DNA of 64,000 nucleotides from Chrysophaeum taylorii (lineage: Eukaryota > Sar > Pelagophyceae > Pelagomonadales > Pelagomonadaceae): contig JAQMWT010000677.1 in NCBI GenBank assembly GCA_029834535.1, positions 1 through 64,000 on the forward strand. Reading direction: 5' to 3'. Below, one piece after another: positions 4,111 to 47,200 of this stretch. How positions within the stretch are numbered: the stretch's first letter is position 1; the number at the start of each line of letters is the position of its first letter. The notes beneath the pieces are model-generated. The model had not been told where the DNA came from, did no database searches, and saw only the letters and a program-made list of their open reading frames with translations. The translations under genes and the position numbers were made by a program.

Positions 4111-4719
4111 GGTTGTAGCAGTAAAAATATGGGTGGCTTCTCCGGATCTGCCTGATTGCCTATATACCATTTTCGCTACTTGAAGATCAGGCTGTCACGA
4201 CGGTGCCTGGTACGTGCCCTCATCCAATCCGCGAATCTCCTGCTGAGTGAGCGCTGCGCTACTGAAAGCGGTCACCGACAGTACCAAAAAGACGGAGGAT
4301 CAATGGTCGTCTCTAGCTAGCTGCAATCGAAAAAAAATTAGGCGACCAAGGCTAAAACCGAGCTCGCGCGCCACTATGATGCACCGCATCACTGGGTAGT
4401 AAGGTGGCTAACACCACAAACGCCGGAAGCACGAAGTCAACTATGCGGACGAGTTTCAAATGCACGGGTCGGACATGGGGTGGGACGCGACCAAGCTCGA
4501 ACCAACAAGAGTACAACAATATCCGCCAGGCGCACCGCCAAGAAGCAGAAGACCGCTCTCGACAGGCCTCACCAACGTTGGCATCAGGTCAACCTCCGAG
4601 CCTGCCCCTCCTATTCCAACGACGCACCCGGCGCCGGAATAGCCTCCGACCGCCGGAGTGCTCGACGCGGTCTAGGCGTCGCCGCCATCTCCTCCCCCAC
4701 TCGGTTGTAGGCCAAGGTG
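4111..4719. other. Unassigned repeat-island sequence
   Basis: Only short open frames with no recognisable domain lie here. It separates the LINE B relic from the Helitron helicase fragment and is probably transposon-derived. Confidence 0.35.
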
Positions 4720-4990
4720 GTCCTTACTACTTATCGACAGATGTTTGTCTGTCTGTTTGTCTGTTTGTTTGTCCCCCGATTTAGGGTAAGGATCAGGTAG
4801 GCGCGCGAGCCAGGCAGTGATCCTCCAAGCCGTCTACGGCGACCTCGCAGACTGTTTCCACGACCCGCGGCGGCTCTTTCAGCGCGCCATTCTCACGCCC
4901 CGTCGAAACGATGTTGTCGATGCTGACAACGCGCGCATGAATGACCGCGGCCTTTTTTTCCCGGAGACGAGGCGTCGGAGTTCTTTTCGG
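4720..4990 (+). mobile_element. Helitron/Pif1 helicase fragment, copy 1
   Basis: The translated stretch AVYGDLADCFHDPRRLFQRA followed by ILTPRRNDVVDADNA (about 4823-4935) matches the Pif1-type helicase block of Helitron transposons (pattern: Y-DL-x-Y-x-(D/N)P-x-x-L-x-x-RAIL-P-N-x-x-V-x-x-x-N). It is preceded at 4741-4775 by a TGTC/TTTG-rich simple tract. The same tract plus the same protein segment occur at 15300-15560 on the opposite strand. This copy is cut off shortly after the block, about 100 bp upstream of the cyclophilin gene. It is a fragment, not a functional helicase. Confidence 0.75.
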
Positions 4991-5127
4991 CCGACTATCG
5001 GCCGACTAGGTTGGGTCGGAAGCCGACGCCTCGCTCTTTACAGTAGAGTAAACACAAAGGTTAGATGATGAGCTGTTTAGACAAGGTGGTTAGCGTTGGG
5101 TCGCAATTTGAGTTGAAGGGCTTTGCA

Positions 5128-5724
5128 ATGTTTCTGTTAGTTTGTTCACTGTCGACCGCCCTGGATATGTCGCGCGCCTCGGTGCTGCGCGTGCCCGCCG
5201 CTTTCGCGACGGTGTCGTCGAACACGATAAAACTCGAGACGAGCGCGGGCGACATTGTGATCGAGCTGCGGCCAGATTGGGCGCCTCTTGGCGTTGAGCG
5301 GTTCTCGAGCCTCGTCGAGGAGGGTTTCTACGACGAGGCGCGGTTCTTCCGCGTCATTCCGGGCTTTATCGCCCAGTTTGGACTGTCGCGCGATCCTAAG
5401 TTGAACGCGAAGTATCGCTCAGCTAATCTCGTCGACGATCCGGTCAAAGTGTCCAACACGAAGGGCACGCTGGTGTTCGCGACCGCTGGACGGAACACGC
5501 GAACTTCGCAGATGTTCATCAACTTCGCAGACAACACGTTTTTGGACCGGCAGGGGTTTGCGCCCATCGGCCGCGTCCTCGAGGGTATGGACGTGGCGGA
5601 AAAATTGTCGGCGAAATATGGCGAAAAACCAGACCAGCGCCAGATCACGCAGCAGGGCAACGCCTACCTCGAAACGTACTTTCCCGACCTCGACTACATC
5701 AAGAAGGCATCCTTCCTTCCCTAG
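5128..5724 (+). CDS. Secreted/lumenal cyclophilin-type peptidyl-prolyl cis-trans isomerase
   Basis: From the methionine at 5128 the product has 198 residues and opens with a hydrophobic signal-like segment ([15 protein letters not shown]). The frame is open back to an ATG at 5065, but that start would bury the signal peptide, so I prefer 5128. The cyclophilin core follows: [13 protein letters not shown] (about 90-102), the [17 protein letters not shown] block (about 135-152) and [13 protein letters not shown] (about 156-168). These enzymes catalyse proline isomerisation during protein folding. The size is that of a single-domain cyclophilin with leader, and it would act in the ER or another signal-peptide-dependent compartment. 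Its 3' end lies 82 bp from the 3' end of the giant formin (tail to tail). Confidence 0.88.
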
Positions 5725-5806: not shown

Positions 5807-8800
5807 TTAGGCACCACCACCACCTTTTCTCATCTTCTGGGCGATCTCCTCGGGCGAGGCGTCGCGCTCCTTGGCAAAGTGGTCGAAGAGGTCGTCGGTC
5901 GGCGTCGTGGGCGGCGGGGCGCCGGGGGGCGGCTTGCGCGGCGTCGCGTCGGAGGAGGCGGCCTGGCCGGCGGCCTCCTTCTCGCGGCGGGCCTTCTCCT
6001 TTTCCTCCTTTTCCCGTTTTTTCTTGGCCTTCTTCTCGGCCGCGAGGCGTTTTTGCTCTTCCTTGGCGGCCTTGTCGGCGAGCTTCTTGTTGATGACCCT
6101 CGCCTTCTCGACGTCCTCGACGAAGTTCGACCATATCGCGAAGAACGCTTGGATCGGGCAACTGTCGCCGTCTTTGGCCTGGCCGCCGTACCTGCGCGTG
6201 CAGCCGCGTCGTCCGAAATGATGGTGGCGCCAAGGCGGCCGAAGAAAACACGCACTTTTCGGCGATGGTCTCGACGGACTTGCGGATTGTTGCGAGGTCG
6301 TCGCTGCAGATCTTGAGCCTGCGGCGAGCGTCTTCCGCAAACGGCTGGAGCTTGGCGACGAAAGGCTGCGCGAACTCGTCGGCGAGCTTGCCGGAGCCAG
6401 TCGCGAGCTCGTCCTCGACGTTTGTCTTGATGGCGTCGTCGAGATTCTTGAAGTCGCCGTCGATCTGCTCGAGGTTGACCGCTTGGGCATCCTTTATTTT
6501 GCTGAGTTCGGTTGTGACGAGCGCTTCCGCGCGATCGTTGCCGATCTGCTCGACGAAAAAGTTGACGAGCGTGCCCTTTTGGGGGTTGGACGAGTACTTG
6601 ACTGTCGCGAGTTTTGTCAGCGTGTCGGGCCGGAAGCCGGCCGCCTCACCGCGCGCCTTGTTTCCCAGATTCATGCGGTTGCCGGCTTTGAGCGCGAGGC
6701 GATAGATGTCCAGCAATACCGACCCGGGATCGCTCGCCTTGCGCAATTGTTCCTCGCCCAGCCGCACGGCGCGCGCCGACTTGAGGATGTCGCCCAGGAG
6801 CTCCTCGAACGTCCGCATCTCCAGGAGCGCCTTCAACCTTTCGACGAGACGCGGCACGGTGCCGATCGTCACGAAGAAACACTCCGCCGGGGCGAGCTTC
6901 TCCTGGACGCAAAACTCGACGCCGCCATTCGACTTGCAGTAGTCCGTCACCTTGTTGTACTCATCGGTCGTCGGCACGAGGTTAAGCCACTTCTGCACTC
7001 CGCCCGCGTCGCCGAGGTCCTCGAGCTTCTTCTCGTCGAGCGAGATTAAGCACCGACGCACCTCGTCGTGCGGCAGCTTAATGCGCCCGAGGCCGATCAT
7101 GATCGCCTGGTTTCGCTTCCCGTCGAGCAGCGACACCTTTTCGACCTTTTTCTTCTTCGCGACTTTCTTCTTCCCGCTCTTGGCCTTGAGCACCGACGGG
7201 TCGCAAAAACCAGCCTCGAGCGCCTTGATCATGGGATCCTCGTCGTCCTTCTTCGTTTCCTGGGCGGGGGCGGCCCCGCCCTTGGCCGCGATCGCCGCCA
7301 TGAGCGGGTTGGCAGGTGGCTTGGGCTTGGGCGCCGCTGCCGGCGACGCCTTCGCGAGCGCCTCCCAGACCGTTGCCGCTATCTCGTCAGGTTTCATCTT
7401 GGACCAGAAGAGGCCCTTCATTTTTACGAGCGTCGGACCGCTCGCCTTCTTTTTGGCGCTCTTCTTACCACCGACACCCGCCTTGAACTTCTTTGGGAGC
7501 GGTTTCTCGGGATCGCAGTCGAGGATCGCCGGATCGACACCCTCGGCTTTCATCTTGCACTCGACGGCCCCGCGCGGCAGGTGCATTTTCAGCATCTTGA
7601 AGTACTTGGCGTACTTGGGATCGTCCTTGAGCGGCGGACCGTCGCCGTCGTCGTCGTCGTCGCCGTCGGGATACGGCTGGTTTGGATCCATGTCGAGGAT
7701 CTTCGGATCGACGCCTTCGGCTCGCATCTTGCACTCGACGGCGCCGCGGGGAAGGTGCATGGCAAGCATTTTGAAGTATTTTTTAAATCGAGGGTCGTCC
7801 TTGAGCGGTGGACCCTTCTTCTTTTTCTTCTTGGGTTTCGGATACGGCTTGTTCGGGTCCATGTCGAGGATCTTGGGGTCTACGCCCTCCGCTTGCATCT
7901 TGATCTCGACGGCGCCGCGAGGCAAGTGCATGGCAAGCATCTTGAAGTACTTCTTGAAGCGCGGATCGTCTTTGAGCGGCGGCCCTTCGTCCTCGTCCGA
8001 CGAGTCCGACTCCTCGCCGGGTAGGGGCTTGTTGGGGTCGTAATCGAGGATCTTGGGGTCCACGCCCTCGGCATGCATCTTTATCTCGACGGCACCGCGC
8101 GGCAGGTGCATGGCAAGCATCTTGAAATATTTCTTGAACCGCGGGTCGTCCTTGAGCGGCGGACGTTGCTTCTTCACCTTCTTCTTCCCACCCGCCGACG
8201 GCGCTACCTCTTCGGGCGGAGGTGCGAGCTGGATCGTTGGCAGCGCCGGGGTTTTGTCGAGACCATAGTCGTGGAGCGTCTTGTTGTCCTCGAGCTGCGT
8301 GCCTTTGTATGACAGGCGCTGCTTGTCGGGCGTCAGCGATGGATCCTTCGCACAGATGAGATCCTTCAGTTTTTTGACAGTCTCCGACCGATCCTCTGCC
8401 TCGACGGTCAGCGACGCCCCCGTCATAACAATTTTCACCAAAACAACCACCGGCTCCTTCGCGCAGTCCTTGCCACACCTCTTGATGCGCTTTTCCAGCG
8501 CCTCGATGCGAGCGTCGCGTTCCGCGAGCCGCGCCGACAAGTTTCCACCGCTGCCACTTCCCGTCAGCGTACCGTCGTCGTCCCCACCGCCTATGCTCGC
8601 CTTCATTTCCAACAGCTTGTGTTTCATGTCGGCGAGCTTGCTCTGCAGTTCGAGAATCTCTGGGTCTTCGCCGCCGCCCTTGCGCTGCTCGGTCTTGGCA
8701 ATGAGCAACTCGATCTTGGCCTCGGCCTTGCTCGCGTCAGCGTGGGCGCCGTTGATGGCACGCCGAAGCGCGGCAATCTCGCCTTTGATGTGCTCTATCT

Positions 8801-11800
8801 CTGAGTCAGGGGCGCCCTGACGCCGCGCCTCGGCGAGGTCGCCCTCCTTGTGCGCCAGCTCCGTTTCGAGCATCTCGATGTACTCGGAGTGTTTGCCGCG
8901 AATCTCTTCCATCGCGCCATCGAGCTTCGCCCGCAAGTTTGTTGCAGCCGCGGTCGCGTCGAGACCGCTGCCGCCGCTTCCGCCCGCACCCCACGCATTC
9001 GCCAACGCGATCGCTTGCTCGCGTTGCTCCTTTGTCGCGTTGAGCTGTTGCGTCAATTCCAGCACGTCGACTGACGCGAGTGCCAGGCCGTCACCCGAGT
9101 TTGTAGCACCCTCGCGGGCGCTCGCAAGGTGCGGGTACTTGCTCAACGCTTCGATTTGATGTTGCTTAAGCATTTGGAGACTGCGTTGCGCGGCTGCGAT
9201 GTCTGCCTCGTTGTGCAGCCCGCCGGTCCCTATTCGATTCACGAGACGATGTTCGGCTTCTGCATGTTCCAGCTCGCCCTTACACCGCTTGATTTCCTCC
9301 TCGATGGCGGCTCGGTCGCTCGGTGTGAGAGTGGGGTCTTTGAGAAGCTCCTCGTTCTCGTGAATTGTGTGCCGGAGGTCTGCGATGTGCGCCTCGTAAT
9401 GCTCTTCGTCCGCTGCCGCCGCATCGAGTGCGAGCTTCGCCGCCGCCACCTTCTCTTTCGCTTTTTGCACCACCTCTGGAGGAGCGCCACTTTCGATTGC
9501 GCGTTGCAACTCTGCCTCGCATTCGGCGACGTGCGACTCGCACGCCTCGACGCGCGACTTGAACGTCCCTGTCTCGACTCCAGCCTGAACACTGGCCGCA
9601 CGCAGCGCGACCTTGGTGCGCGCGATCTCTTCCTTGATCTTGTTCTTCTCGGCCTCGGTCGATGCCGTTTTCAGGCTTGCCTCGAGCTTACTCAGCGTTG
9701 TTTCCAGCTGCTTCACGCGAGCCTCGCCGCCCCGCGTCACGTCGTCGCGATTGTAGCTTATCTCCCCCGTCAGGTCGTTCCGGTAAAACGTGTTGCCATC
9801 CGCGTCGATCGCAGTCGAGATGCTCGTGGCTGCCGTCAGCATTTCCTCCAGCTCCCATATCTTCTCCTTGGATCCATGTTCTTTGAGCACTTCCTCCTGC
9901 GCACGCGCGCCAGCACGCGAGCTCACAGCAGCAGAAAACCGGGACTCACCAGCGTCGAGCCCACAGCCCCAGTTTTTTCATTGACAAAATACTCATTATC
10001 CTCTTCGTCCCACTCGACGTAGATTCCAAGAGCCTCGTAGATCTGCCCCTCGAGATCCTCGATTGCGCCGTCGCCGACGCCCATAGCCGCCTCGTAGATC
10101 GTCCATCCCCACTGGCCCGTGTCGTTGTTGACGTAGTAAGTTTCGTCGGTATCCTCGTCATACTCTTCGGTAATATCGCCAAATTCCCAAAGCTGCGCTT
10201 CTAACTCGGCGACGTAATCGTCGTACTCGCCCATCGAGTTGCCAAACATCGAGACTTCCTCTCTCGTCCAGCCCATGGCACCTACGCAACACTTGAGAGA
10301 GAGACAAGTGTGATTTGGCGTACCGGTGTCGTGATTGATGAAGTATTCTTCGCCTTTGAGAGGACAGGTTGTCAGAAATGTGATCTGGTTTGACGGAGAA
10401 CTAAACGCACCATTCTCGTCGACCTCCCGGGTGATGTTCTCTTCGCCACTTTCGTATCGCGCGAGCTTGGCTTCTAATTCGGCAATTTTCTTCTCGTTCT
10501 CGCTCTGACCCGCGCCCGGAGTTGCAACCTCCTCACGCGTCCATCCAATTTTCCCGGTATCGTTGTTGACGAAGTACTGGTCACCATTCGCGTCGATGGC
10601 CGTGGTGATGTTCTCCGCTGGAGCTGGTGCTTCGATGTTTTTGCTACCCTGGCCTTTGACTGCAAGTCGCGCAAGCAACGTTGCCTCGCTGTCTGCAATC
10701 GCGCCCTCCAAGCTTGACAGCTGGTTGGTGGGCGCGCTGTGGTCGACGACCTCCTCGCGACTCCACCCCGACACTCCCGTGTTCGAGTTGTACCAGTACA
10801 AATGACCTTCCTCGTTCAGCCCGCTCACAATGCCGTCATCCATCACCGCCGATGCGGCCGCCGCCGCTGTCTCGGCCGCCTGCGCCGAGCTCGCAGCCTT
10901 CGACTCCGCAGCGGCGACAGCCTCGCGAAGCTCCTCGATTTCGAGATCCTTCGCTCGAGCCTTGTTCCTTAGTAATTCCAATTCGTCGCGTAGTTCCCTG
11001 CAAGACGTGAAATCAACTCGCAATAGTTCATCTAAGGACGCTGGAGACCATGCTGGAGTTCTTGTTCCTTGGCGCTCATCGACAACACGGTCTCGTCGTA
11101 GCACTTGGCCTTCTTTTCAACTTCGATCTGCGACTTTCGCAGCTCTGCCAAATGCATGCCGGAATTGCTCCACAGCAAGCCAATGTCGTTGTCCATCAGC
11201 GTCGCCTCCAGCTCTTCGCCTGAGAGTCGCCACGCGTAAGAACCACATGATCAGGCATGAGACTCAGAATGTCACGAGTCCAGGCACTTTGCCCGGTCAC
11301 TTCGTTCAAAAAAAACTCGTTGCCTTCGTCGTCATACTCCACAACGATGTTGTCGTGGTCGACTGTGGTGGGGTGTTTTTGCGGCCGTATTCCAGCAGCC
11401 CGCCGAATGTGTTCAACAGCCTCGCGCGCGACGCGCCACGTCTTCCCAGCGTCGTGAACCGGACACAGAAGTAGTTCGTGCAGTACCGCGACAAGATCGG
11501 GGATCGTGCCGGCTTGAGTCGCGCTCGTGATGACAAACCGGGTCAGAGCGAGGGGATTCGACGCGTCAAGTTTGTGCATTGCCTCGTTCTTCGACCACGA
11601 GTTTTTAGACTGAGCGTGCGCGTCAACGACGTCTTTGCGCGTCCAACCAGTCGCGCCCGTCGTTCTATTTAGAAAGTACGTGCTGCCACTGTCGGGATCC
11701 ACCTCTTCGGTAATGTCATCATCACCTTCCCCGTGGCCGTCGAGGAGCTCTTCTCGATGCCACGCGACAGCGCCTGCGTCACCCGACGTCTGAACAAACA

Positions 11801-14631
11801 CTCAACAGTCGCGCACACCCGAGTTCTCGTCTCGAAAGTATGTGTTCCCTTGCTCGTCCTGAACCTCGACTATGTTGGGGATCTTCTCCGACGAAGAAAC
11901 GTCCTCGTCCATCGAATCGAGCTCTTGCACTGTGAGTTCTCTGTCGGCGTTCTGAACGGCACGGAATATTTCGAGTTGTTTTTTCAAGTGCTCGGCATGA
12001 TCGCGAAGCTCGTCGGGATCCAAAAGACTTGGATCTCCTTTGTCGTTATATTTGTGGTGTGCGGAATTCTTTGCAGTAACGGCGCGAACGTCTCGTCTTG
12101 ACGTTCTGAGGGCGACACACCATGCGAGGTGGTCTTCTTCGGTCTCGACGCCAAGCTGCAGCGGGTGATGAGGAGGCGCCAGCGCGAGTTCGATGCCATG
12201 GGATAGCGAGGAATTGAGCATGGCGTCGGAGGTTGCCGTTCGAACAGCCAGCACCTCCTGCATTGAGAGCGAATTCTTGTCACGTGCGTGTGCCCCCCCG
12301 TTCGCTGCTGTCCCGTGGCTTGCTGCCACGCGACTGGCCCTGTCCAAGAAATGGTCGTCATCCGTTTCCAGCCACGCACTCTCGCTCCCAGCCGCCTCGA
12401 GCTTTGTCGGTTTTGTCCAAGCCAAAACTCCATCGTGGAGAATGAATTTCCAGAGTTTCGTCGTTTCGTGCCCGATCGTGGCATGCTTGGCCATAACAAG
12501 GACTCCGATCATTCGACCAGCCCGGGGATCGATTCCGCGCTCTGGTGCGTACGGGAGGCCCGATTCGGCATCTGCCGCAGACCCACGACCGTCGCTGTGG
12601 CCGAGTTTTGTTCCCTGTAGCTCTCGCAGCTTCTCGAAAGGCACCCAGGAGTTCGCTGCTGTATCGTGTGCTTCGTCTTCGCTACAGAATGCAAAAAGGT
12701 CCGCGTTCCTATCATCCGCCGTCTTTTCCCCGCCTCGACTCAAGCTTTCTATCGCGTGACTCGCCAGCGCTTCGATGCCGACCTGCGCGAGTTCCCGCGG
12801 TGTGACGAGCATTCGCGGATGGATGGTCATTTCTCACAGCCAAGAGGGTATTCCGTAGTGCGACGCGCCTGACGCCACACTCTCTTCAAAAATTTATACG
12901 CCAACACGCACTGTTCTAGAGTCTTGGTGCCGATGATCATCTGGTTGCACAGCGAGAAAGTTTGCGGCTTGGCGTCCACAGCTCCAACCTGTGAGATTCA
13001 ATTTGTGCCCGCGGCAGATTCTTGCGTCTAGACGCTGCCGCCAAGAGACGCGAAGCAAAGCCGCAACCCACGCAAACGGTGCTTCGAGGCGGCGCAATCG
13101 AAGCCGCTCGAAGGCACGCAACACCTTCTGCCGTCCCACTTCGGAATAATAAACTGGGATGCACAGCATTTCGAGCGCCTCTGCCTGGATGCTCCGACCG
13201 TCGTCGCCTGCGGAGCGGATGGAGTTGGCGTGCCATGCAGAGCGCTGACCAGCGTCGAGTCTCAGATGGGGAACGGGCTCGGTGCACATCGCAATGATAT
13301 CGAGGGCGCTGTTGGCCATATTGACCTAAATCGGCGCTGTCTCAGGACGACTCGCAAAAACACGCAACCTTTTCGAGCCCGGTAGCGTTGTTCATCAGCG
13401 CGCGGAAGCACCCCATCCTGAGGGTCCGTTGGCAACACAGCCGCGTGCGATGAGACTTGCCCCGCGGCCACAACGTTCGCGTCGCAGGACAAGAAGGGAT
13501 CGGCAGCGAGATGTCTTCTGACGACGGACGCGACGCTCTCGATGCCGTCGCGCACGCAGAATCCCGAGATCCAGTCGCGGCCCGCAGCCTTCATGACGAC
13601 GCGAAGCTGTCTGAGTAGCACGGCAACGTAATCGCTCTCGCGATGGACGGTGCCCAGCGAGGACTCGAAGGAGCCGACGCCGGATGAGGCGCGCACGAAA
13701 GTGGCCGCGTCGGCGTCGCGCACGGCGCGGAGCGCTGCCGCGCCGTAGTCCTCCTGAATGGTCTGTCGCCGCGACTTTTTCTTTTCTTGTGGTTGCTCGT
13801 GTTTCATGCTCGCTTGAGCCTCAATCATCTGCTTCTTCTTGTCGACGCTGAGCTCTTTTGCTAATTTCTCGCGCACGTGCGATGGCACCATCTGCTCCGC
13901 GAGCATTTTCTCAAACTCTGCCGAGATGCGCTCCTCGGGCGATGCGTTTGGATTTGCCGGCATGGCCGATGGCTCCGGCTCCGGCATCACCTCCACCTCG
14001 GGAGCCGGGGTCCTCGCGGCTTCGATGGCCGCGATCCAGGCGTCGCGCGTCTCGGCCTACAGGTGGGGACTTCGTTCGATAGCGAGTTGTTGCACGTCGC
14101 GCCTCGCGCGCGGCGAACACGACGTCGCCGTTTTTGGTGTGTGTGAGCGTGAAGGCGAATCGACCGTGCGCGTCCTGCGCCTTGGATTGTACGCCATCCG
14201 TCGTCGTCACGTCGACCTGTGGTGAAAATGTGATGCGGCAAGCACGAGCGACGACGCGCCGAGCCGAGAGGCGTCGCGCGCTCTGCGCTTGCCCAGAAGA
14301 GCCAGTGCCCGTGAAGCACGCAGAACCGCTCTTTCCAGGTGAGCGTGAACTTGGCACGCTTTTCGAGCCACCCGCGCATCGCATCATGGTGGACCTCCTC
14401 GGCGGCGGCGGCGGCGGCGGGAGCGGGTGCCTCGACGTTTTCGGGAGGGTTGGATGCCGAAGCGTCGGGAAGTGCCGGAGGAACGAGCTCTTCCCGCGAC
14501 CACGCAACTTGCCCGGTGCGGGGATTCGTGTAGTACGTGCGGCCACTCGCGGGGTCGACGTCCTCCACGATCTCGTCGTCGCTTGGGCGCGACGCGTCTC
14601 CCGGACACTCCTCGTGGAAAGAAGAAGCCAT
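5807..14631 (-). CDS. Giant multidomain formin (WW-PH-GBD/FH3-PH-WW array-coiled coil-Ub-like-CCDC53-like repeats-FH2)
   Basis: I joined 15 exons: 14631-14260, 14216-14103, 14056-13461, 13417-13369, 13325-13068, 12988-12912, 12868-12838, 12782-11819, 11773-11276, 11219-11054, 10997-10411, 10353-10324, 10281-9950, 9896-6256 and 6191-5807. They sum to 8,100 nt in one frame (2,699 residues). Domains in order: WW-like (about 18-50), PH (85-175), GBD/FH3 (190-510), second PH (590-735), nine WW-like repeats (800-1390), coiled coil (1400-1830), ubiquitin-like (1840-1920), four CCDC53-like repeats (1938-2160) and FH2 (2180-2630), ending in a basic Lys/Arg/Glu-rich tail. FH2 domains nucleate and elongate actin filaments; PH domains bind phosphoinositides or proteins. 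There is no obvious polyproline FH1. Four introns fit only as GC-AG. The start is the ATG at 14631, before the first WW-like repeat. Exon ends are my own reading and are not confirmed by RNA. Confidence 0.82.
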
Positions 14632-14651: not shown

Positions 14652-15000
14652 AGTGCAGGCCAGTAAGTTCACCTATCTCTAACCCCAGTAAGTTCACCTG
14701 GTCCCAGTAAGTTCACCTGGTCAGTAAGTTCACCTAGTCCCAATCTCTAACCCCAGTAAGTTCGACGTAAACCCACTCGTGCTCACCTCACACCCACTCA
14801 CCCCACTCTCCTTCGAGCTCGTCGCTCTCACCTCCGCCAATCTAAGCCGCTTTTATCCGTACACGCCGCTAGCCTTTGCGTTCACTCTAAAAACCCCTGT
14901 AAGTTCACTTGGTCCCAGTAAGTTCACCTGGTCACTTAGTTCACCTTGTCCCAATCTCTAACCCTAGTAAGTTCACCTGGTCCCAGTAAGTTCACCTACC
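14652..15000. repeat. Degenerate 19-nt tandem repeat field (CAGTAAGTTCACCTGGTCC)
   Basis: Two blocks (about 14659-14765 and 14897-15000) contain repeated copies of a 19-nt unit close to CAGTAAGTTCACCTGGTCC, separated in places by CCAATCTCTAACCC. Between them lies about 130 bp without clear repeats. The field lies between the start of the giant formin (14631) and the Helitron helicase fragment, so it would sit in the formin promoter. It could be the 3' region of the Helitron or an independent minisatellite. Confidence 0.8.
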
Positions 15001-15089: not shown

Positions 15090-15560
15090 TCGGGGTTGCC
15101 GATCGACAGAGAGCCACGTAGAGCTGGACGTGGCAGAAGACGGGCTTTGCCAAGAGGACGCCGACCTCGCGGGCGTCTGGCCCTGGCTCTTGTTGATCGT
15201 TTGGCGTCGGTGGGGCTTAAGGGATACAGGTTGGAGGAGCCTCGGTGACACGACACGATCGATCATGTATCTGGTACCGTTGCAGTGGCCTCGTCTTCGG
15301 GAAAAAAAGGCCGCGGTCATGCGCGTTGTCAGCATCGACAACATCGTTTCGACGGGGCGTGAGAATGGCGCGCTGAAAGAGCCGCCGCGGCTCGTGGAAA
15401 TAGTCTGCGAGGTCGCCGTAGACGGCTTGGAGGATCACTGTCTGGCTCTCGCGCCTACCTGATCCTTACTCTCGCGCCTACCTGATCCTTACCCTAAATC
15501 GAGGGACAGACAGACAAACAAACAGACAGACAGACAAACATCTGTCAATTAGTAGTTAGG
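15090..15560 (-). mobile_element. Helitron/Pif1 helicase C-terminal fragment, copy 2
   Basis: Read on the minus strand, this holds AVYGDLADYFHEPRRLFQRA then ILTPRRNDVVDADNA, then NGTRYMIDRVV. Next come the helicase motif TINKSQGQT and, after a one-base frame change, REVGVLLAKPVFCHVQLYVA followed by LCRSATPRI. That order is diagnostic of the Pif1 helicase end of Helitrons (QLYVALSR-type motif, here with Cys for Ser). The upstream side carries a TTTG/TGTC simple tract (15500-15540 on the plus strand as GACAGACAAACA) and a 23-bp tandem duplication at about 15450-15495. It is the more complete of two copies facing each other across 5.0-15.1 kb. Frameshifts make it a pseudogene. Confidence 0.82.
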
Positions 15561-17848: not shown

Positions 17849-20800
17849 TTAAGACGTCGTCCACTCGTCATCAGAGTCACCGAGGAGGTCGTCGATGAGA
17901 CCGGCGTCATCGTGGGCGGCAGGGCGGGTCGAGGCGCGGCGCACGATGCGAAATGTCGCCGTCGCGACCTCGGAAAGTACCGAGAGGCCCGGCTCGATGG
18001 CGTCGTCCTGCTGCTTGGTAGTCGTCGATTGTTTTTGACGCCGCCGTTTCGCCGCCTCGAGGTCGCGCGCGATGGTGTCGACAACGTGCACTCGGTCCCT
18101 GAGGTTTTCGAACCACGCCGCAGCCTGGACGTCGTCGTCCTCGCCGTAGTACAAGAGTAAGCGTTTCGCTCTCGAATCGATTTCGTCGCGATCTCGCTCG
18201 AGGTCGTCCGCGCGTCGTCGGAGCGATTGGGCCCAGGGCTTGAGGTGGTCCTCCGAGGAGGCGAGGTCGGCGTCAGCGCGAAGGGTTTGGAGGACGTCGT
18301 CGATGGGCTCGTCGCGGCGGATAGCGTCGAGGGGACCCGCGAGCTCGTCGGCGAGGCGTAAGGGATCGGGACAGTCGGGGGTCTCGCTCGCCACCTGGAC
18401 GACAAAGTCGAGCGCGCTCGAGAAGGACGGGACCGACGGTTTCGCCGCCGATAACTTGTCGAGGGCCTCGAGCTTGACGCCCGCGGCCTGCCGCGACGCG
18501 GCGGCGTGGTTGAGCGCGTTGCCCGCGAAGAGCGCGAGCCGGAGAATAGCCTTGAAGGTCTCCGAGGCCTGCACGGCGTCGACCGCGCATTTCATCCGGA
18601 GCGTGCGCCCGGCGGCGTCGGCGACGCGCTCGTCGCAGGTGACGCGGGCTTTGGCGAGGCCGAGGTGCGCGCGGAGTCGCGGGCAGAGCGTCCTCGCGCC
18701 GAGCACGAACGCCTCTTCGTCCCCGCGGTGGTTCGGCGCTTGGCGAATCGCCTCGAGCTCCTCGTCGTCCGCCTCGGGGGACGGCGGCAGCACGCTCCGC
18801 AGCACGAGGTTGATCGTCTCCTCGTCCATCTCGTCGCCCGACAAGCTCGCGGAAACGGCCGACGCCAACGCCTCGGGCTCGCCGAGATTCGCTTCCTTGA
18901 GCTTGCGCAGCGCGACGGCGACCGCCTGCACCCTTTTCGGGTCCAGCGCCGAGGCGCTCGGCGGTGCTTTTTCCTTGGGCGCGGCCACGACCACTTTGGC
19001 CGGCGCCTTGGCGAAGCTTTTTTCCAGGCGGTCTAGCCGAGCGACGACGGCCGCGCGGGCTGTTTCGAGCTTGGAGGGATCGTCGTCCTTGGCCCACCAC
19101 GACGCCTTCCAGTGCTCCTTGTCGAGGGGCGTCCACCACACGGGCCGCAGCGCGACCGACGGAGACGCGCCGAGCGCCGCCGGCTTGAGGGCCTCTTCCT
19201 TTTCTTTTGCTGCTGGAGTCGCCTCGAACAGTTGCGCCGGGTCGAGGCCCTCGGCCTGCATTTTCAAGCGGAGGTTGGCCTCCGGAAGGCCCATCTTCTT
19301 GAGACGTCGGTACTTCTCCAGTCTCGGATCCTCCTTTTGCTCGAAGCTTTTTTCCTGGCTGTCGCCGCCGCCAAACACCTTGGCTGGGTCGAGGCCCTCC
19401 GCCTGTATCTTGAGCCGGAGCAAAGGTTCGGGCATGCCCATCAATTTCAACTTGCGATACTTCGAGTACACATCATCCTTTTTTTCTTCTTCTTCTTCTT
19501 CTTCTGGCGGCGGCGGCGGCGCTTCCGGCGCCTCCTTTTTCTGGGGAGGTCGAATCTCGTCGGCGCGTTTGGCGGCGAAGAGCTGCGCGAGCGCGGCCGG
19601 CGCCTCCTTTTTCTGGGGAGGTCGAATCTCGTCGGCGCGTTTGGCGGCGAAGAGCTGCGCGAGCGCGGCCGGGTGCTTTGCGTCGACGCGAGCGGTATCG
19701 GGGCAAGCCTCCTTCTTCGCCTCCTCCTCTTCTGCGGGTCGCCGCCGCTGCTCTTTCTTCACCTCCTCAGCAACTGGCGCCGCAGCGGCGGCAGCTTCTT
19801 TGGCCGCTCGTCGGGAGAGGAGGCTGGTCGCGGAGAGGAGGGCCTTGAGGGCGTTGGGATTCGGTTCGGCGAGGAGCGCGGCCTCGAGGTGCGCGGTAAG
19901 AGCGGCGACGCGTGCCGGGAGGGGGTCGGCGATGACGAGGCGCGCGGCGTCGCGGACGCGGGCCGTTGCTTCTCGCTCGTCGCTCTTTTCTCTCGCGTCG
20001 ACCCGAGCGACCATCGCTCTGACGGCCGCGGCGGCCCTCGCGCGCGAGAGACCGCGGAGGCTCTCGCGCATCATTCCGTCGTCGTCGTCGTCGTCGTCGT
20101 CGTTCTCCGCATCCTCGAGGTGCGGCGCCGCGTCGCGGAGTTTGCGGAGGGCGCCGAGGACGCCCGCGCGCCCGAGCTCGGCGAGGAGCTTGAGGCGGTC
20201 GGCTACGTCGCGCGGCCGGGAGCCCGGCGGCTTGGTCGCTACGGTGCAGACGAGGTCGACGAGGGCCGCGACGAAGGGGAGCGGGGCGTCGTCGGCGAGC
20301 TGGAAGACCATTTCGGCCTCGGCGAGGCGCGCGGCGAGGGGGTCCCAGAGCGAGCGGAGGGCCTCGACGACCGCGGCGTGACCGTCTCTGGACCTCGCGC
20401 AGAGCTCGGCCAGCCGGAGACAGGTCGCGGCCGCGTGGGCGATCTCCCGGGGCTCGGAGAGCGCGGGGGCGAAGGAGCGGAGCGCGTAGTCGGCCAGCAA
20501 CTCGAGGGGGCTCTGGTGGCCGTGGTCGAAGACGCGCGCGCAGAGCTTGAGCGCGCACTCGGAGTCGGCGAGGAGCGGAAGAAAGCAGTCGACGCAGGCG
20601 ACCGCGTGGGCCCGCGCGTCGGCCGCCTCGAGGGAGTGCTGGGAGGTGAGGCGCCGCAGGGTGTCGCCGACCCGTCGCGAGACTACCCCCTCCGAACGCC
20701 GGATTGTCTGGGGGTCGGCGAAGCTCAGGCGCTGCGCGAGCGCGGCGAGGCGCGACCGGCCGCCGAGCGGTTCGGTCGCTATTTCGAGGGGCGGCAGCTT

Positions 20801-21997
20801 TTCGGCGCGCTCGCGGAGCGCGGGCGCGTTGGTTTCGTGCTGGATGCGCCACTGGAGCGCCTGTCGCGCCCACCGCTGCGCCTCGAGGAGCGCCGCGAGC
20901 CACGCCTCGCGGGCTTGGCGAGACTCGGCGCGCGCGACGAGCTTGCGGCGGGCGGTCGCGACGCCAAAGAGGTGCGGATCGTCCTCGTCGCGCGCGAGCA
21001 CCGCGTCGAGGTCCACCACGTCCCGCGCCTCGGGCTCCCGGACGGCCTCCGAATGAAACCACCGGAGCTCGGACCCGGCGAGACGCGCGTAGTGTCTCCT
21101 CGACCCGACCCGCAGCCAGCCCTCGCGGAACGCGCGGCACGGCTCGGGGGGCGTCCAGTGACTCGCGCGCGGGACGCCGCATCGCGCGCATCGCAGGAAC
21201 CCAAAGCTCGCGTGCTCGACGAAGATCTCGCACGAGGCCTCCTCCTCCTCCTCCTCCTCGGTCGTCGCGAGGCTTCGCTCGCCCTTCTCCTGGATGTGCG
21301 AGAGCCACCGGTCGCGCTCCTCCTCGGTCCCGCACGCGAACTCGACCGACGTCTCGCCGAACCGCGCCGTGAACCGCACCAGCTCCTTGTCCGAGGCAAA
21401 ACGCCCCGACGCGGCCGTCCGCTCGACCCGCGCGCTTCGCAGCGGACCGTACTCGGCCACGCAGGGTCCGCCGCGTGTTTTGTAGACTCTTAACGAGTCG
21501 CCTTCGCTCGTCACGAGCCGTTGTTTCCACCCTAGCTCGCGGACGGCCTTGCGCATCCAGAGCCACGCCGATAATTCCCCCGCCTCCAAAATCGGCGCCC
21601 CAGAGGCAGCGGAAAGGGCCTCGACCCACTCGCGCTTCGCGTCCATCGCGTCGGGCGCGACCGCGAGACACCAGTCGCGCTCGCGCGTCCGCACCTCGAA
21701 CCGGCACTCGGCCGGCGGAAACTTCTCGTCGCTGCGGCACGACCACACCACCTCCACGATCTCCTGGAGCAGGATCTCGCCCTTGCACCCGCTTTTCTTC
21801 GACTCGTCCTTCCAGTACCGCAGCCGTCCGACCTCCATTACGAAGTGCCGCCGGTCGAAATGCTTCTTCCACCGCCCGCCGCTCGCCTTGTAGAGCCACC
21901 CCCGCATCTCGCGCCGGTTCGTATACAGCGGACACGCACCCTCCACGACACTCCCCCGATTTTCCCCGAACACGCCATCGTACCCATCACCACTCAT
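17849..21997 (-). CDS. Second formin: triple PH, helical region, CCDC53-like repeats, FH2
   Basis: A single 1,382-residue reading frame. PH domain 1 starts at MRGWLYKASGGRWKKHFDRR (about 30-130), PH 2 follows (about 138-240) and a third PH-like domain covers about 290-375 (FREGWLRVGSRRHYARL). Residues about 400-760 form an alpha-helical, armadillo-like region in the position of FH3. An exact 24-residue duplication (AALAQLFAAKRADE...) occurs at about 778-825. Two CCDC53-like repeats (KYRKLKLMGMPEPLLRLKIQ, KYRRLKKMGLPEANLRLKMQ; each followed by AEGLDPA) lie at about 845-925. A divergent FH2 domain fills about 945-1330. The only proline run is a short PPPPP before the repeats. The product should act on actin at membranes. 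The start codon is 62 bp from the divergent gene at 22060. Confidence 0.85.
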   Translation of the reverse strand: MSGDGYDGVFGENRGSVVEGACPLYTNRREMRGWLYKASGGRWKKHFDRRHFVMEVGRLRYWKDESKKSGCKGEILLQEIVEVVWSCRSDEKFPPAECRFEVRTRERDWCLAVAPDAMDAKREWVEALSAASGAPILEAGELSAWLWMRKAVRELGWKQRLVTSEGDSLRVYKTRGGPCVAEYGPLRSARVERTAASGRFASDKELVRFTARFGETSVEFACGTEEERDRWLSHIQEKGERSLATTEEEEEEEASCEIFVEHASFGFLRCARCGVPRASHWTPPEPCRAFREGWLRVGSRRHYARLAGSELRWFHSEAVREPEARDVVDLDAVLARDEDDPHLFGVATARRKLVARAESRQAREAWLAALLEAQRWARQALQWRIQHETNAPALRERAEKLPPLEIATEPLGGRSRLAALAQRLSFADPQTIRRSEGVVSRRVGDTLRRLTSQHSLEAADARAHAVACVDCFLPLLADSECALKLCARVFDHGHQSPLELLADYALRSFAPALSEPREIAHAAATCLRLAELCARSRDGHAAVVEALRSLWDPLAARLAEAEMVFQLADDAPLPFVAALVDLVCTVATKPPGSRPRDVADRLKLLAELGRAGVLGALRKLRDAAPHLEDAENDDDDDDDDGMMRESLRGLSRARAAAAVRAMVARVDAREKSDEREATARVRDAARLVIADPLPARVAALTAHLEAALLAEPNPNALKALLSATSLLSRRAAKEAAAAAAPVAEEVKKEQRRRPAEEEEAKKEACPDTARVDAKHPAALAQLFAAKRADEIRPPQKKEAPAALAQLFAAKRADEIRPPQKKEAPEAPPPPPEEEEEEEKKDDVYSKYRKLKLMGMPEPLLRLKIQAEGLDPAKVFGGGDSQEKSFEQKEDPRLEKYRRLKKMGLPEANLRLKMQAEGLDPAQLFEATPAAKEKEEALKPAALGASPSVALRPVWWTPLDKEHWKASWWAKDDDPSKLETARAAVVARLDRLEKSFAKAPAKVVVAAPKEKAPPSASALDPKRVQAVAVALRKLKEANLGEPEALASAVSASLSGDEMDEETINLVLRSVLPPSPEADDEELEAIRQAPNHRGDEEAFVLGARTLCPRLRAHLGLAKARVTCDERVADAAGRTLRMKCAVDAVQASETFKAILRLALFAGNALNHAAASRQAAGVKLEALDKLSAAKPSVPSFSSALDFVVQVASETPDCPDPLRLADELAGPLDAIRRDEPIDDVLQTLRADADLASSEDHLKPWAQSLRRRADDLERDRDEIDSRAKRLLLYYGEDDDVQAAAWFENLRDRVHVVDTIARDLEAAKRRRQKQSTTTKQQDDAIEPGLSVLSEVATATFRIVRRASTRPAAHDDAGLIDDLLGDSDDEWTTS
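19525..19668 (-). repeat. Exact 72-bp tandem duplication inside the second formin
   Basis: Positions 19525-19596 and 19597-19668 appear identical on reading. The duplication adds 24 residues in frame, in the linker before the CCDC53-like repeats. Complete identity points to a recent event or an assembly artefact. Confidence 0.85.
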
Positions 21998-22059
21998 CGT
22001 GTGGCGAAAACTCCACTCATCTTTCCTTTACGACTAACTAACCCGCAGCTTGTTGAAAC

Positions 22060-44200: not shown

Positions 44201-47200
44201 GCTTGGCGCGCTCGTCTTCGGCCGACAAACTCTTTTTTTCCGACAAGAGCTCGACGCCGCGCGATATCTCGAGAGCCCACTGCGCGTCGTAGATTTGCCG
44301 CCGGACGTCCTCGCAGTTCCCGAGGAGGGCCGCGCGCGCGCGCGTCAGATCGCGCCAGCCCGCTTCTCCGGCGTCGAGCGCCGCCGTGATGCTCCTGAGT
44401 TCTCCGCGGATCGCCTCGCGCTGCTTGTCCATCGCGACCGCCATGCGGTCCGCTTCGCTCTTGGCCTCGCGCACGGCCTCGCGCGCCGCCGACCGCGACG
44501 CGTCGAACTCGGACAGAATCTTCAACGTCTCGCGTTCCCACTCGTCGCGCGGCGCTTCCTCCTCTTCTTCCGGGACGACGCTTGTCGTCTTCGGCGCCCC
44601 GAAGGGCGCGGGCGCCGTCCTCGACATTGGCGGGATCGGCGCGTGCCCCAGGGACGCGCGACTCGACCCCGAAGAAGGAGAAGAGCTTCCCTCGAGCACC
44701 TTGGCTTTGTTGGGTGCTTCCGTCGATGGCTTTGCCGGATACGACACTTTCGACGGCGCCGACGATCCGAACGACGACGCTCTGGGGGCCGTCGTGGAGC
44801 TCCCCGTCGGCTTTGGTGACTCTTGATACGACGGCGTCGAGATCTCGGCCATCGCTCCGATCGGTTTTGGCGCCTCCTTCGCCACGCCGGCGAACCCGCC
44901 CGAGCCTTTATTTGGGGTCGCCGTCGAGCTCGGCGCCGAAGACGCACCACTAAAAAACGGCTTTGGTGCGCCCGTCGCCATCGGGGGGTACCCACCAGAG
45001 CTCTTCTTTGCTTCGGCTGCTGGGGCAAATCCAAACAACGGCTGGGCCGCGCTCGTCGGCGTGATACCGCCCGAGTCCGTTGACGGGGCTGGCGCTGTTG
45101 CTGTTGCTGCTGCTCCTCCAAAGGGCTTGGGCGCCGTCTTCGACATGGGCGGGATACCGGCAAATCCGGTTGACGGGGATAGAGCTGTTGCTGCTCCTCC
45201 TCCTCCTCCTCCTCCGAAGGGCTTTGGACCTGTCTTCGACATGGGCGGGATGCCGGCGAAGCCAGTCGACGGGGCTGGAGCTGTTGCTGCTCCTGCTCCA
45301 AAGGGCTTGGGCGCGGTCTTCGACATGGGCGGGATGCCGGCGAAGCCAGTCGACGGGGCTGGAGCTGTTGCTGCTCCTGCTCCAAAGGGCTTGGGCGCGG
45401 TCTTCGACATGGGCGGGATGCCGGCGAAGCCAGTCGACGGGGCTGGAGCTGTTGCTGCTCCTGCTCCAAAGGGCTTGGGCGCGGTCTTCGACATGGGCGG
45501 GATGCCGGCGAAGCCAGTCGACGGGGCTGGAGCTGTTGCTGCTCCTGCTCCAAAGGGCTTGGGCGCGGTCTTCGACATGGGCGGGATGCCGGCGAAGCCA
45601 GTCGACGGGGCTGGAGCTGTTGCTGCTCCTGCTCCAAAGGGCTTGGGCGCGGTCTGCGACATGGGCGGGATGCCGGCAAATCCAGTCGACGGGGCTGGAG
45701 CTGTTGCTGCTCCTGCTCCAAAGGGCTTGGGCGCATTCTTGGACATGGGCGGGATGCCGGCGAAGCCAGTCGACGGGGCTGGAGCTGCTGCTGCTCCTGC
45801 TCCAAAGGGCTTGGGCGCGGTCTTCGACATGGGCGGGATGCCGGCGAAGCCAGTCGACGGGGCTGGAGCTGCTGCTGCTCCTGCTCCAAAGGGCTTGGGC
45901 GCGGTCTTTGACATGGGCGGGATGCCGGCGAAGCCAGTCGACGGGGCTGGAGCTGCTGCTGCTCCTGCTCCAAAGGGCTTGGGCGCGGTCTTCGACATGG
46001 GCGGGATGCCGGCAAATCCGGTCGACGCGGCTGGAGCAGCAGCCGCTCCTCCTCCTCCAAAGGGCTTGGGCGCAGTCTTCGACATCGGCGGAATGCCGGC
46101 GAAGCCAGTCGAGGGAAATTCTGGCTTGGGTGGGGCCGCGATGGCTGGTGGCGCGGATTGCGCCCCCGAAGGCAGGGCCTCTAAGGGGGTCGGATTGACG
46201 TCGTCGGCGGCATCGTTGGTGAATTTGTAGACGGAGAGGACCGAGGCCGTGCTGAGGAGAAGCACGAGCGAGGTGGGCTTGGGATGGTCGGTGCGAGTGG
46301 AAGCGATCGCAAGACCGGCGATGAAGACCGTAAATTCCTCGCCGTCGCGCGCGATTGTCGGAGCCCTCGCCGCGAGGAGCGTCTCGTCCTCGGGCGCGTG
46401 GACGTGCCAGTCGTAGTCTGCCCGAGACCTCAGCAGCTTGACGTCGGGAGCGAGATTCGTGCAGGCGAGGCAGCACCCCCAAGCGGGGTGGGCCGCCACG
46501 AAAAGGTCGTGGGGACCGTCGCCGTCGAAAGCGACGAGGCAGTCGTCGAGGTCTGCGGGCTGCGAGACGACGCGACCCTCCGCGTCGAAGACGGCGCAAG
46601 CGACGTTCTCGACGCCCGGGCCGCGCGCGTACCATACCAGAAGCTTGGCATCGTCGAGCCACGCGAGACCGGTGACGCGCCAGCCATCCTCCCGTTCGAA
46701 CTCGACGGCCGTCGCGAGGAGCCGCGTCTCCCCGACCTCGACGGTCGCGTCGGTCGCGACAGCTAGAATCGACGACGTCGGATTGAACGCGCACGCCGAC
46801 GCGCCAGGTGTCTCCCGGACAACCTCGAGCGCGGTCGAGAGAACCACGACGCCGGTAGATGTGGTGACGGCGACGCGCCCGTCGCCGGCGACATCGAGCC
46901 GCCGCACGATATCGGGGACGCGCCGCGCGCCGTCGCGACGCCAAGAAAGGTCCGAAGATAATCGCAGCGCGCACACCTCTCCTGCCTCTGTCGCCACCAC
47001 GACGCGCGGCCCGGAGGGCGCGGTCGCGAGGCATGCGACCGGGCTCTCCATCCGAAGACTGCTCGAGGGCGCCGCGAACGGCCTTGCCTCCCGTCGCCGT
47101 CCCTCGCGTCGCGCCGCCCCTTCGACATCGGTCACGCGCCAAGCCATGACGCGCGTTCCCGCACCCAACACGACGACCCCGTACCGATCAAGCACGCCCA

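What the first reader, a model, noticed from the sequence alone, without database searches (positions are those of the whole stretch)
5807..14631. A 2.7-kresidue formin with an unfamiliar domain order
My hand-spliced model stays in one frame through 15 exons. It reads WW-like, PH, GBD/FH3, PH, nine WW-like repeats, coiled coil, ubiquitin-like domain, four CCDC53-like repeats, FH2. Formins are normally GBD-FH3-FH1-FH2(-DAD). I know of no described formin with a ubiquitin-like domain and a WW array. It may be a scaffold that couples phosphoinositides and proline-rich partners to actin assembly.
Basis: partly seen in the sequence, partly recalled or inferred. Interest (0 to 1): 0.78.

Follow-up and report, generated by a model that had tools for sequence, protein, structure and literature searches.

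The report
Algal formin with WASH-type motif array
This algal gene encodes a very large actin-building protein (a formin) in which the usual proline-rich feeder segment is replaced by four copies of a small motif known from the WASH complex; most formins found in the same genome share this replacement, which hints at a different way of feeding actin to a growing filament.

Summary
A minus-strand gene (14631-5807) reads as one open frame once short introns are removed. My model has 14 exons and 2,724 residues: WW-like, PH, GBD/FH3, probable second PH, nine WW-like repeats, coiled coil, ubiquitin-like domain, four CCDC53-type motifs, FH2. Ubiquitin, CCDC53 and FH2 matches lie in one uninterrupted 1,413-codon frame. 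Paralogue L022 carries the GBD/FH3-PH-FH3-CCDC53-FH2 backbone in one open frame and in the same order, so two fused genes are unlikely.

The emphasis should shift. WW, PH and GBD/FH3 were already reported among stramenopile formins. The ubiquitin-like domain and the WW array were found only in this gene among 18 formin loci of its genome. The unexpected part is shared: the C-terminal motif of CCDC53 (WASHC3) precedes FH2 in 16 of 18 loci over Pfam's cut-off (17 of 18 with my profile). It also occurs in two WAVE-like proteins and in the genome's own WASHC3. Proline runs of four or more precede FH2 in only 4 of 18. No profilin was detected, whereas cofilin, Arp2/3 and WASH were.

I propose that the motif stands in for FH1-profilin in supplying actin. 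That step is inferred, not shown.

The parts
5807..14631 (-). Whole coding span of the formin model (14 exons, 2,724 aa). Exons: 14631-14260, 14216-14103, 14056-13461, 13417-13369, 13325-13050, 12988-12874, 12832-11819, 11773-11276, 11219-11054, 10997-10411, 10353-10324, 10281-9950, 9896-6256, 6191-5807
   Evidence: alternative automatic chains
14485..14574 (-). WW-like repeat 1 (aa 20-49)
14015..14379 (-). PH domain 1 (aa 85-176), split by two GC-AG introns (14259-14217, 14102-14057)
   Evidence: Pfam PH 1.8e-11 after splicing, 7.7e-4 before
12905..13939 (-). GBD / first part of FH3 (aa 202-497), with introns incl. GC-AG 13460-13418
   Evidence: Drf_GBD 5.6e-13; blastp to L022 over aa 210-497, 3.9e-12
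12090..12510 (-). Probable PH domain 2, between two FH3-like stretches
   Evidence: hhalign 91%, E 1e-6; colinear with L022 aa 302-415; Pfam itself silent
11379..11579 (-). Second part of FH3-like stretch (aa 911-977), after WW-like repeats 2 and 3
   Evidence: blastp to L022 aa 399-468, 1.4e-4
9738..11876 (-). Nine WW-like repeats (aa 827-1436): about 11745-11876, 11628-11717, 11209-11351, 10748-10834, 10526-10612, 10253-10438, 10088-10177, 9888-10027, 9738-9824; four of the nine are interrupted by introns
8466..9737 (-). Long Ala/Glu-rich, Pro-poor stretch (aa 1437-1860), read as coiled coil
   Evidence: composition; no coiled-coil program was run
8208..8450 (-). Ubiquitin-like domain; position 44 of ubiquitin (Ile) is Ser here, no terminal Gly-Gly
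   Evidence: Pfam ubiquitin 7.5e-12, 1.2e-13; PDB ubiquitins; own-genome search
7521..8150 (-). Four CCDC53-type motifs: 8046-8150, 7866-7970, 7695-7799, 7521-7625
   Evidence: Pfam, own profile, direct repeat 169 nt x4
6100..7439 (-). FH2 domain, including intron 6255-6192; the lower end is approximate
   Evidence: Pfam FH2 2.4e-54 over 7439-6258; mDia1 5.4e-23
5807..5890 (-). C-terminal tail with a possible DAD-like stretch
   Evidence: by eye against L022 and L024 tails; no Pfam DAD hit

Best explanation
The gene encodes a GTPase-gated, membrane-recruited formin in which an array of CCDC53 (WASHC3) C-terminal motifs takes the place of the proline-rich FH1 domain. SHOWN by sequence: one open gene with GBD/FH3, PH, WW-like repeats, a ubiquitin-like domain, four CCDC53-type motifs and FH2; the motif lies 13-71 residues before FH2 in 17 of 18 formins of the genome, and lies between proline runs and WH2 in two WAVE-like proteins. 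INFERRED: (1) GBD/FH3 holds FH2 shut until a Rho-family GTPase binds; (2) PH and WW-like modules, the coiled coil and the ubiquitin-like domain place and cluster the protein; (3) each CCDC53-type motif, modelled as a three-helix mini-domain, captures an actin monomer (or a small actin-carrying protein) and hands it to the FH2 dimer at the filament end. This would do the work of FH1-profilin in an alga in which no profilin was detected. In the WASH complex the same motif would be supplied by the separate subunit WASHC3, in WAVE and formins by the nucleation factor itself.
For: One open frame from ATG to stop, with PH and WW-like domains spanning exon junctions. Colinearity with L022 in four blocks and an FH2 tree joining the window gene, L022 and L034 (support 99/97). 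CCDC53 over Pfam's cut-off in 16 of 18 FH2 loci; 17 of 18 with my profile. Of 23 loci with a CCDC53 match in the genome (40 matches), 16 are formins, 2 are WAVE-like with WH2 and 1 is WASHC3 itself, which alone has the N-terminal half of the family; L039 has a sub-cut-off WH2. No proline run of 4 or more within 250 aa before FH2 in 14 of 18, the window gene included. Profilin 0 matches at E<=10, while the similar-sized cofilin family gives 9 matches, P34-Arc 3 and WASH 1. AlphaFold model of the motif: three helices, mean pLDDT 88.6.
Against: No binding or activity data exist. 'FH2-adjacent' can reflect one ancestral fusion kept by duplication rather than 17 independent cases. Two CCDC53-bearing loci (C685, C119) have no recognised actin domain. 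L030 lacks the motif. L024 has both proline runs and the motif, so replacement is not complete. WASHC3's C-terminal half has no known actin-binding role that I know of. Profilin was searched in unspliced frames and its control genomes rang nowhere, so a split or divergent profilin could be missed. The motif has no fold match in the PDB and no sequence match (best E 0.13).
Confidence: 0.45

Rival explanations
1. The CCDC53-type motif is a docking or regulatory module, not an actin feeder. It binds a shared partner (a WASH or WAVE complex subunit, capping protein, or the FH2/WH2 region itself) and so links formins, WAVE and WASH in a common assembly or in autoinhibition.
For: The motif is at home in a structural subunit of the WASH complex (L037). 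It folds as a compact helical unit in the model. It occurs in two proteins without a recognised actin domain.
Against: Its place next to FH2 or WH2, in tandem copies with variable linkers, is where monomer-recruiting segments lie in other actin assembly factors (general knowledge). A docking site need not be adjacent or repeated.
Confidence: 0.35
2. Ordinary domain shuffling. A stramenopile formin picked up WW-like, PH and ubiquitin-like modules without a change in how it assembles actin; the CCDC53 motif is an inherited spacer of little function.
For: Stramenopile formins are known for the widest range of attached domains, incl. WW, PH, C2, PTEN and ANK (PMC2386819 section 7). The ubiquitin-like domain and WW array were found in 1 of 18 loci.
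Against: The motif keeps invariant Pro and Lys and near-invariant Met, Gly, Asp, Pro across 33 aligned copies from formins, WAVE-like, WH2 and WASHC3 proteins whose pairwise identity to the first row falls to 26%. Spacers do not do that.
Confidence: 0.15
3. Gene-model artefact: two or more neighbouring genes (for example a WW/PH protein and an FH2 protein) joined by hand splicing.
For: No transcript was available. Four of 13 introns need GC donors, and automatic chains differ in exon count.
Against: PH 1, WW-like repeats 2, 4, 7 and 9 and FH2 each span an exon junction, and domain scores rise on splicing. L022 has GBD/FH3-PH-FH3-CCDC53-FH2 in one uninterrupted frame in the same order. Ubiquitin, CCDC53 and FH2 share one frame.
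Confidence: 0.05

Closest known systems
Diaphanous-related formins (mDia1; GBD/FH3-FH1-FH2-DAD)
   Same: GBD/FH3 and FH2 by Pfam; FH2 aligns with mDia1 at 5.4e-23.
   Different: No proline-rich FH1 (longest proline run in the model is PPP). CCDC53-type motifs stand there instead. Extra WW-like, PH and ubiquitin-like modules. DAD not detected by Pfam.
Stramenopile formins with WW, PH, C2, PTEN or ANK (Grunt et al. 2008, PMC2386819)
   Same: WW, PH and GBD/FH3 are listed for stramenopile formins (Table 1).
   Different: Ubiquitin-like and CCDC53 are not in that table; 'ubiquitin' does not occur in its main text. The paper notes FH1 in stramenopile formins, which is missing here.
CCDC53/WASHC3, subunit of the WASH complex (PF10152)
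   Same: The C-terminal motif (profile positions about 62-147) is shared, four copies, 1.2e-51.
   Different: The N-terminal coiled-coil half (positions 1-57), present in the genome's own WASHC3 (L037), is not matched in the formins.
WAVE/SCAR proteins
   Same: Two WAVE-like proteins of this genome (L038) carry the same motif between proline runs and WH2; the first matches WAVE1 at 5.4e-14.
   Different: WAVE has no FH2 and works through Arp2/3.
L039 protein of the same genome (WW-like x3, PH, proline runs, CCDC53 motif, WH2)
   Same: Shares WW-like, PH and CCDC53 modules with the window gene.
   Different: WH2 (below Pfam's cut-off) in place of FH2; two frames joined by eye only.

Membership tests
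Formin (FH2 protein) | FH2 domain | tested here: met
   Pfam FH2 2.4e-54; mDia1 5.4e-23, Daam1 3.7e-19, Bni1 5e-5
Canonical FH1-FH2 formin | Proline-rich FH1 before FH2 | tested here: not met
   No proline run of 4 or more in the 2,724-aa model; PPP at 1942, 2684 and 2689 only
Diaphanous-related formin | GBD/FH3 domain | tested here: met
   Drf_GBD 5.6e-13 after splicing; homology to L022, whose ORF has a sub-cut-off Drf_FH3 hit, 7.5e-6
Diaphanous-related formin | C-terminal DAD | tested here: inconclusive
   No Pfam DAD hit in the C-terminal frame (protein 8). A D-L-F-x-x-F/L stretch is shared by eye with L022 and L024 tails
CCDC53/WASHC3 | C-terminal conserved motif | tested here: met
   Four stretches, 1.2e-51
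CCDC53/WASHC3 | N-terminal coiled-coil half (profile 1-57) | tested here: not met
   Best stretch in the window frame is profile 84-147; profile 1-57 is matched only in L037 among the own-genome matches
WW domain | Pfam WW match | tested here: met
   2.9e-19, four stretches passing on their own
WW domain | Two signature Trp and closing Pro (recalled) | tested here: not met
   By eye on the ten repeats: first Trp 0 of 10, closing Pro 0 of 10, second Trp 8 of 10
Ubiquitin | Ubiquitin-fold sequence match | tested here: met
   7.5e-12; 42% identity to the genome's ubiquitins
Ubiquitin | C-terminal Gly-Gly for conjugation | tested here: not met
   The domain is internal and runs on into TIQLAPPPEE
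PH domain (second copy) | Pfam PH match | tested here: inconclusive
   Pfam silent; hhalign 91%, E 1e-6; AlphaFold model of the L022 region too poor to decide, mean pLDDT 51.9
Formin | Actin nucleation or elongation activity | not testable with these tools
   Needs biochemistry

The most novel reading that the evidence does not exclude
The C-terminal motif of WASHC3 is an unrecognised actin-supply domain. In this alga it has replaced FH1-profilin across the actin assembly machinery: in cis in 17 of 18 formins and two WAVE-like proteins, in trans through WASHC3 in the WASH complex, in a cell that may lack profilin. It would give the conserved but unexplained tail of WASHC3 a function in other eukaryotes too.
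Probability: 0.25. Interest if true: 0.88.

Novelty: new variant of a known kind. Interest (0 to 1): 0.6.

Why it matters
Formins are taught as FH1-FH2 machines that take actin from profilin. A genome in which most detected formins carry a WASHC3-type motif where FH1 should be, and in which no profilin was detected, suggests a second solution to the same supply problem. The shared motif links formins, WAVE and the WASH complex, and makes a testable prediction about the conserved tail of WASHC3. The window gene adds a ubiquitin-like domain and a WW-like array. My paper searches for CCDC53/PF10152 together with formin or FH2 found no paper joining them, and one for formin with ubiquitin-like or WW domains listed none whose title or abstract start describes such a formin (20 of 42 shown).

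Tried and rejected
Rejected readings: (a) two fused genes: split domains across junctions and colinearity with L022 speak against it. (b) CCDC53 motifs as a curiosity of this gene: they are genome-wide in formins. (c) The ubiquitin-like domain as a conjugable ubiquitin: no Gly-Gly, and Ile44 replaced by Ser in the alignment.

Led nowhere: relatives outside this genome. Viral contigs with the window motif array gave 3 pattern matches and no relative, with alignment A4 176 and none; genome contigs with A4 177 and none. Those collections hold viruses and prokaryotes, so the distribution among eukaryotes is untested. Solved structures: best sequence match to the motif profile E 0.13; fold search 8 matches, best E 2.7, none at 0.001. 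AlphaFold of the L022 GBD-FH3-PH region: mean pLDDT 51.9, not used as evidence. No paper was found on WASHC3's C-terminal motif binding actin (10 of 20 listed titles and abstract starts seen).

Weak points: and one search used codon scores trained on nine paralogue frames. In one search the FH2 start was set by eye for 7 of 18 loci (window model, L026, L027, L032, L034, L035, L036). L035 has 3,753 withheld bases. L036's FH2 scored 32.2 bits, under the 34.8 cut-off, (34.9 with neighbours). FH2 and CCDC53 counts in the genome are lower bounds. The second WAVE-like protein (L038:1772-3394) was recognised by similarity to the first by eye; only the first was searched against the PDB. WH2 in L040 is by eye; Pfam did not report it.

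Full report
WHAT IS THERE. The window lies in a 70.8-Mb, 697-contig eukaryotic assembly (G000:C677) with 84 light-harvesting-protein matches, so a photosynthetic alga; I did not identify the species. On the minus strand, from the ATG at 14631 to the stop ending at 5807, one frame can be followed through 14 exons to a protein of 2,724 residues. The introns are 41-64 nt long; nine are GT-AG and four GC-AG (donors at 14259, 14102, 13460 and 11053). I chose junctions by domain continuity and by the paralogue L022, not by transcripts. Codon-usage models without that knowledge also run open from the same start: 15 exons and 2,526 aa, with the stop at 5809-5807 scoring best by a small margin, or 12 exons and 2,691-2,720 aa with the stop fixed by me.

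DOMAINS. The last long exon lies in a 1,413-codon open frame that alone holds ubiquitin (7.5e-12), four CCDC53 stretches (1.2e-51) and FH2 (2.4e-54). In the unspliced frames PH (7.7e-4) and Drf_GBD (7.4e-7) lay under Pfam's cut-offs; in the spliced model they rise to 1.8e-11 and 5.6e-13, and WW reaches 2.9e-19. This independent gain supports the junctions, GC donors included, in the first third of the gene. The second PH is not seen by Pfam in this gene. Aligned with the same stretch of L022 and L024, it matches PH domains of this genome by profile (probability 91%, E 1e-6), and L024 has a weak PH hit there (7.6e-4). Ten WW-like repeats lie at aa 20-49 and between aa 827 and 1436; by eye they keep the aromatic pair and, in 8 of 10, the second Trp, but none has the first Trp or the closing Pro. 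None of 200 shuffles of the region matched the repeat profile. The ubiquitin-like domain is 42% identical to the genome's ubiquitins. It lacks Gly-Gly, and the alignment puts Ser at Ile44, so it looks like a fixed interaction module rather than a conjugated ubiquitin (inference).

ONE GENE. L022 is a paralogue whose backbone is a single 1,166-codon open frame. It aligns with the window protein in four ordered blocks: window aa 210-497, 696-825, 911-977 and 1961-2719 against L022 aa 24-220, 302-415, 399-468 and 516-1155 (the second and third overlap by 17 residues in L022). What lies between the blocks in the window gene is WW-like repeats 2-3, then WW-like repeats 4-10, the coiled coil and the ubiquitin-like domain. 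The window gene is therefore an L022-type formin enlarged by insertions. An FH2 tree of the 18 loci joins the window gene with L022 and L034 (99/97); the program flagged the window row for unusual composition.

THE SHARED FEATURE. The own genome has FH2 matches at 18 loci (20 matches, a lower bound), one of them a second formin in this window (17852-22027). CCDC53 is over Pfam's cut-off in 16 of 18, under it in L029 (16.3 bits) and absent from L030's report. My profile, built from the window's four repeats and iterated, finds the motif in 17 of 18, ending 13-71 residues before FH2 (seven FH2 starts set by eye). Proline runs of four or more occur within 250 residues before FH2 in 4 of 18: the second window formin, L024, L025 and L027. 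L024 has both a proline-rich stretch and the motif, so the two are not exclusive.

WHERE ELSE THE MOTIF OCCURS. All 40 own-genome CCDC53 matches fall in 23 loci. Sixteen are the formins. Two are proteins at L038 with WH2 over Pfam's cut-off; the first matches human WAVE1 from the SCAR region on (5.4e-14), the second resembles the first by eye. In both the motif lies between proline runs and WH2. L037 is the real WASHC3, the one with the N-terminal half of the family as well. L039 has proline runs, the motif and a WH2 below the cut-off, behind frames with three WW-like repeats and a PH domain. L040 has the motif and, by eye, WH2. The last two, on C685 and C119, have no recognised actin domain and count against a strict actin-only rule. 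Pro at motif position 23 and Lys at 30 are invariant in 33 aligned copies, and Met 31, Gly 35, Asp 37 and Pro 38 nearly so. AlphaFold gives three short helices (mean pLDDT 88.6) with no solved neighbour.

PROFILIN. Pfam profilin gave no match in this genome at 0.001 or at E<=10. The tool warns that its control genomes rang nowhere, so this is not proof. As a yardstick in the same genome, cofilin/ADF, a family of similar length, gave 9 matches, P34-Arc 3 and WASH 1.

MECHANISM. By established knowledge GBD/FH3 formins are opened by Rho-family GTPases and FH2 dimers ride the barbed end. The part that feeds them, FH1, is missing here. I infer that the CCDC53-type array captures actin, directly or through an unknown carrier, and passes it to FH2. 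Reasons: position, repetition with variable linkers, the same motif next to WH2 in WAVE-like proteins, its presence as a separate subunit in the WASH complex, and the undetected profilin. The docking rival is nearly as likely, because the motif's one known home is a structural subunit. PH 1 has a basic K-x-R pattern as in phosphoinositide-binding PH domains (recalled), which would suit membrane recruitment; the WW-like and ubiquitin-like parts are most simply partner-binding modules.

PRIOR KNOWLEDGE. Grunt et al. 2008 (PMC2386819; abstract, section 7 and passages seen) list FH1, GBD/FH3, PH, C2, PTEN, ANK and WW for stramenopile formins, and warn that such models need cDNA. 'Ubiquitin' does not occur in its main text. 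Searches for CCDC53/DUF2360/PF10152 with formin or FH2 gave no paper that joins them (listings only, 20 of 885 shown). One passage of a downy-mildew genome paper (PMC7217449) lists PF10152 together with PH and Diaphanous FH3 among Pfam domains whose numbers differ between oomycetes; this fits CCDC53 being multi-copy in stramenopiles but does not show it in formins. Passages of PMC3298513 and PMC12050087 gave background only.

VERDICT. As a kind this is a formin by its FH2 domain, but not a canonical FH1-FH2 formin: a new variant of a known kind. The gene's own oddities (ubiquitin-like domain, WW-like array) matter less than the genome-wide swap of FH1 for a WASHC3-type motif.

Noticed in passing
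window 17852-22027 (-): A second formin in the same window: two PH matches passing on their own (3.1e-20), two CCDC53-type motifs and FH2 (1.4e-27) in one open frame. Its FH2 groups with L030 (100/99), not with the first gene.
   Followed up: partly
window 4719-4934 and 15321-15536: The formin gene and the neighbouring ORF 5065-5724 lie between inverted copies of a repeat (152-nt arms, 97% complementary, plus two shorter pairs). The repeat is dispersed: 40 copies scored of 2,097 candidates in the genome.
   Followed up: partly
window 14684-14997: Tandem and direct repeats of CCCAGTAAGTTCACCTGGT just upstream of the start codon; possibly a promoter-side repeat or mobile-element remnant.
   Followed up: no
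window 5065-5724 (+): An ORF that reads like a cyclophilin-type isomerase (by eye) ends 83 nt from the formin's stop, convergent.
   Followed up: no
window 14259, 13460, 14102, 11053 (-): Four of 13 introns in my model use GC donors, one of them the classical GCAAGT. GC-AG introns may be common in this alga.
   Followed up: no
L038:5292-6761 (+) and L038:1772-3394 (-): Two divergent, neighbouring WAVE-like genes (0.34 Mb into contig C670) each carry the CCDC53-type motif between proline runs and WH2.
   Followed up: yes
L039:3421-5141 (-): Overlapping frames with three WW-like repeats, PH, proline runs, CCDC53 motif and a weak WH2: probably one actin-regulating protein that shares modules with the window formin.
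   Followed up: partly
L036:6928-9900 (+): A CAP-Gly domain (2.6e-17) in front of a CCDC53 motif and a weak FH2: a possible microtubule-actin link.
   Followed up: no
L031:1-4443 (-) and L033:5796-9899 (+): Formins whose C-terminal tails carry a similar Cys-rich stretch (CAEC...WYCADCW) that looks like a small zinc-binding element (by eye).
   Followed up: no
window 45206-46112: An 84-bp (28-codon) minisatellite of 10.8 copies at 95% match, possibly coding.
   Followed up: no
own genome (G000): No Pfam profilin match at E<=10, although cofilin, P34-Arc and WASH were found. Worth a proper test on a proteome.
   Followed up: partly
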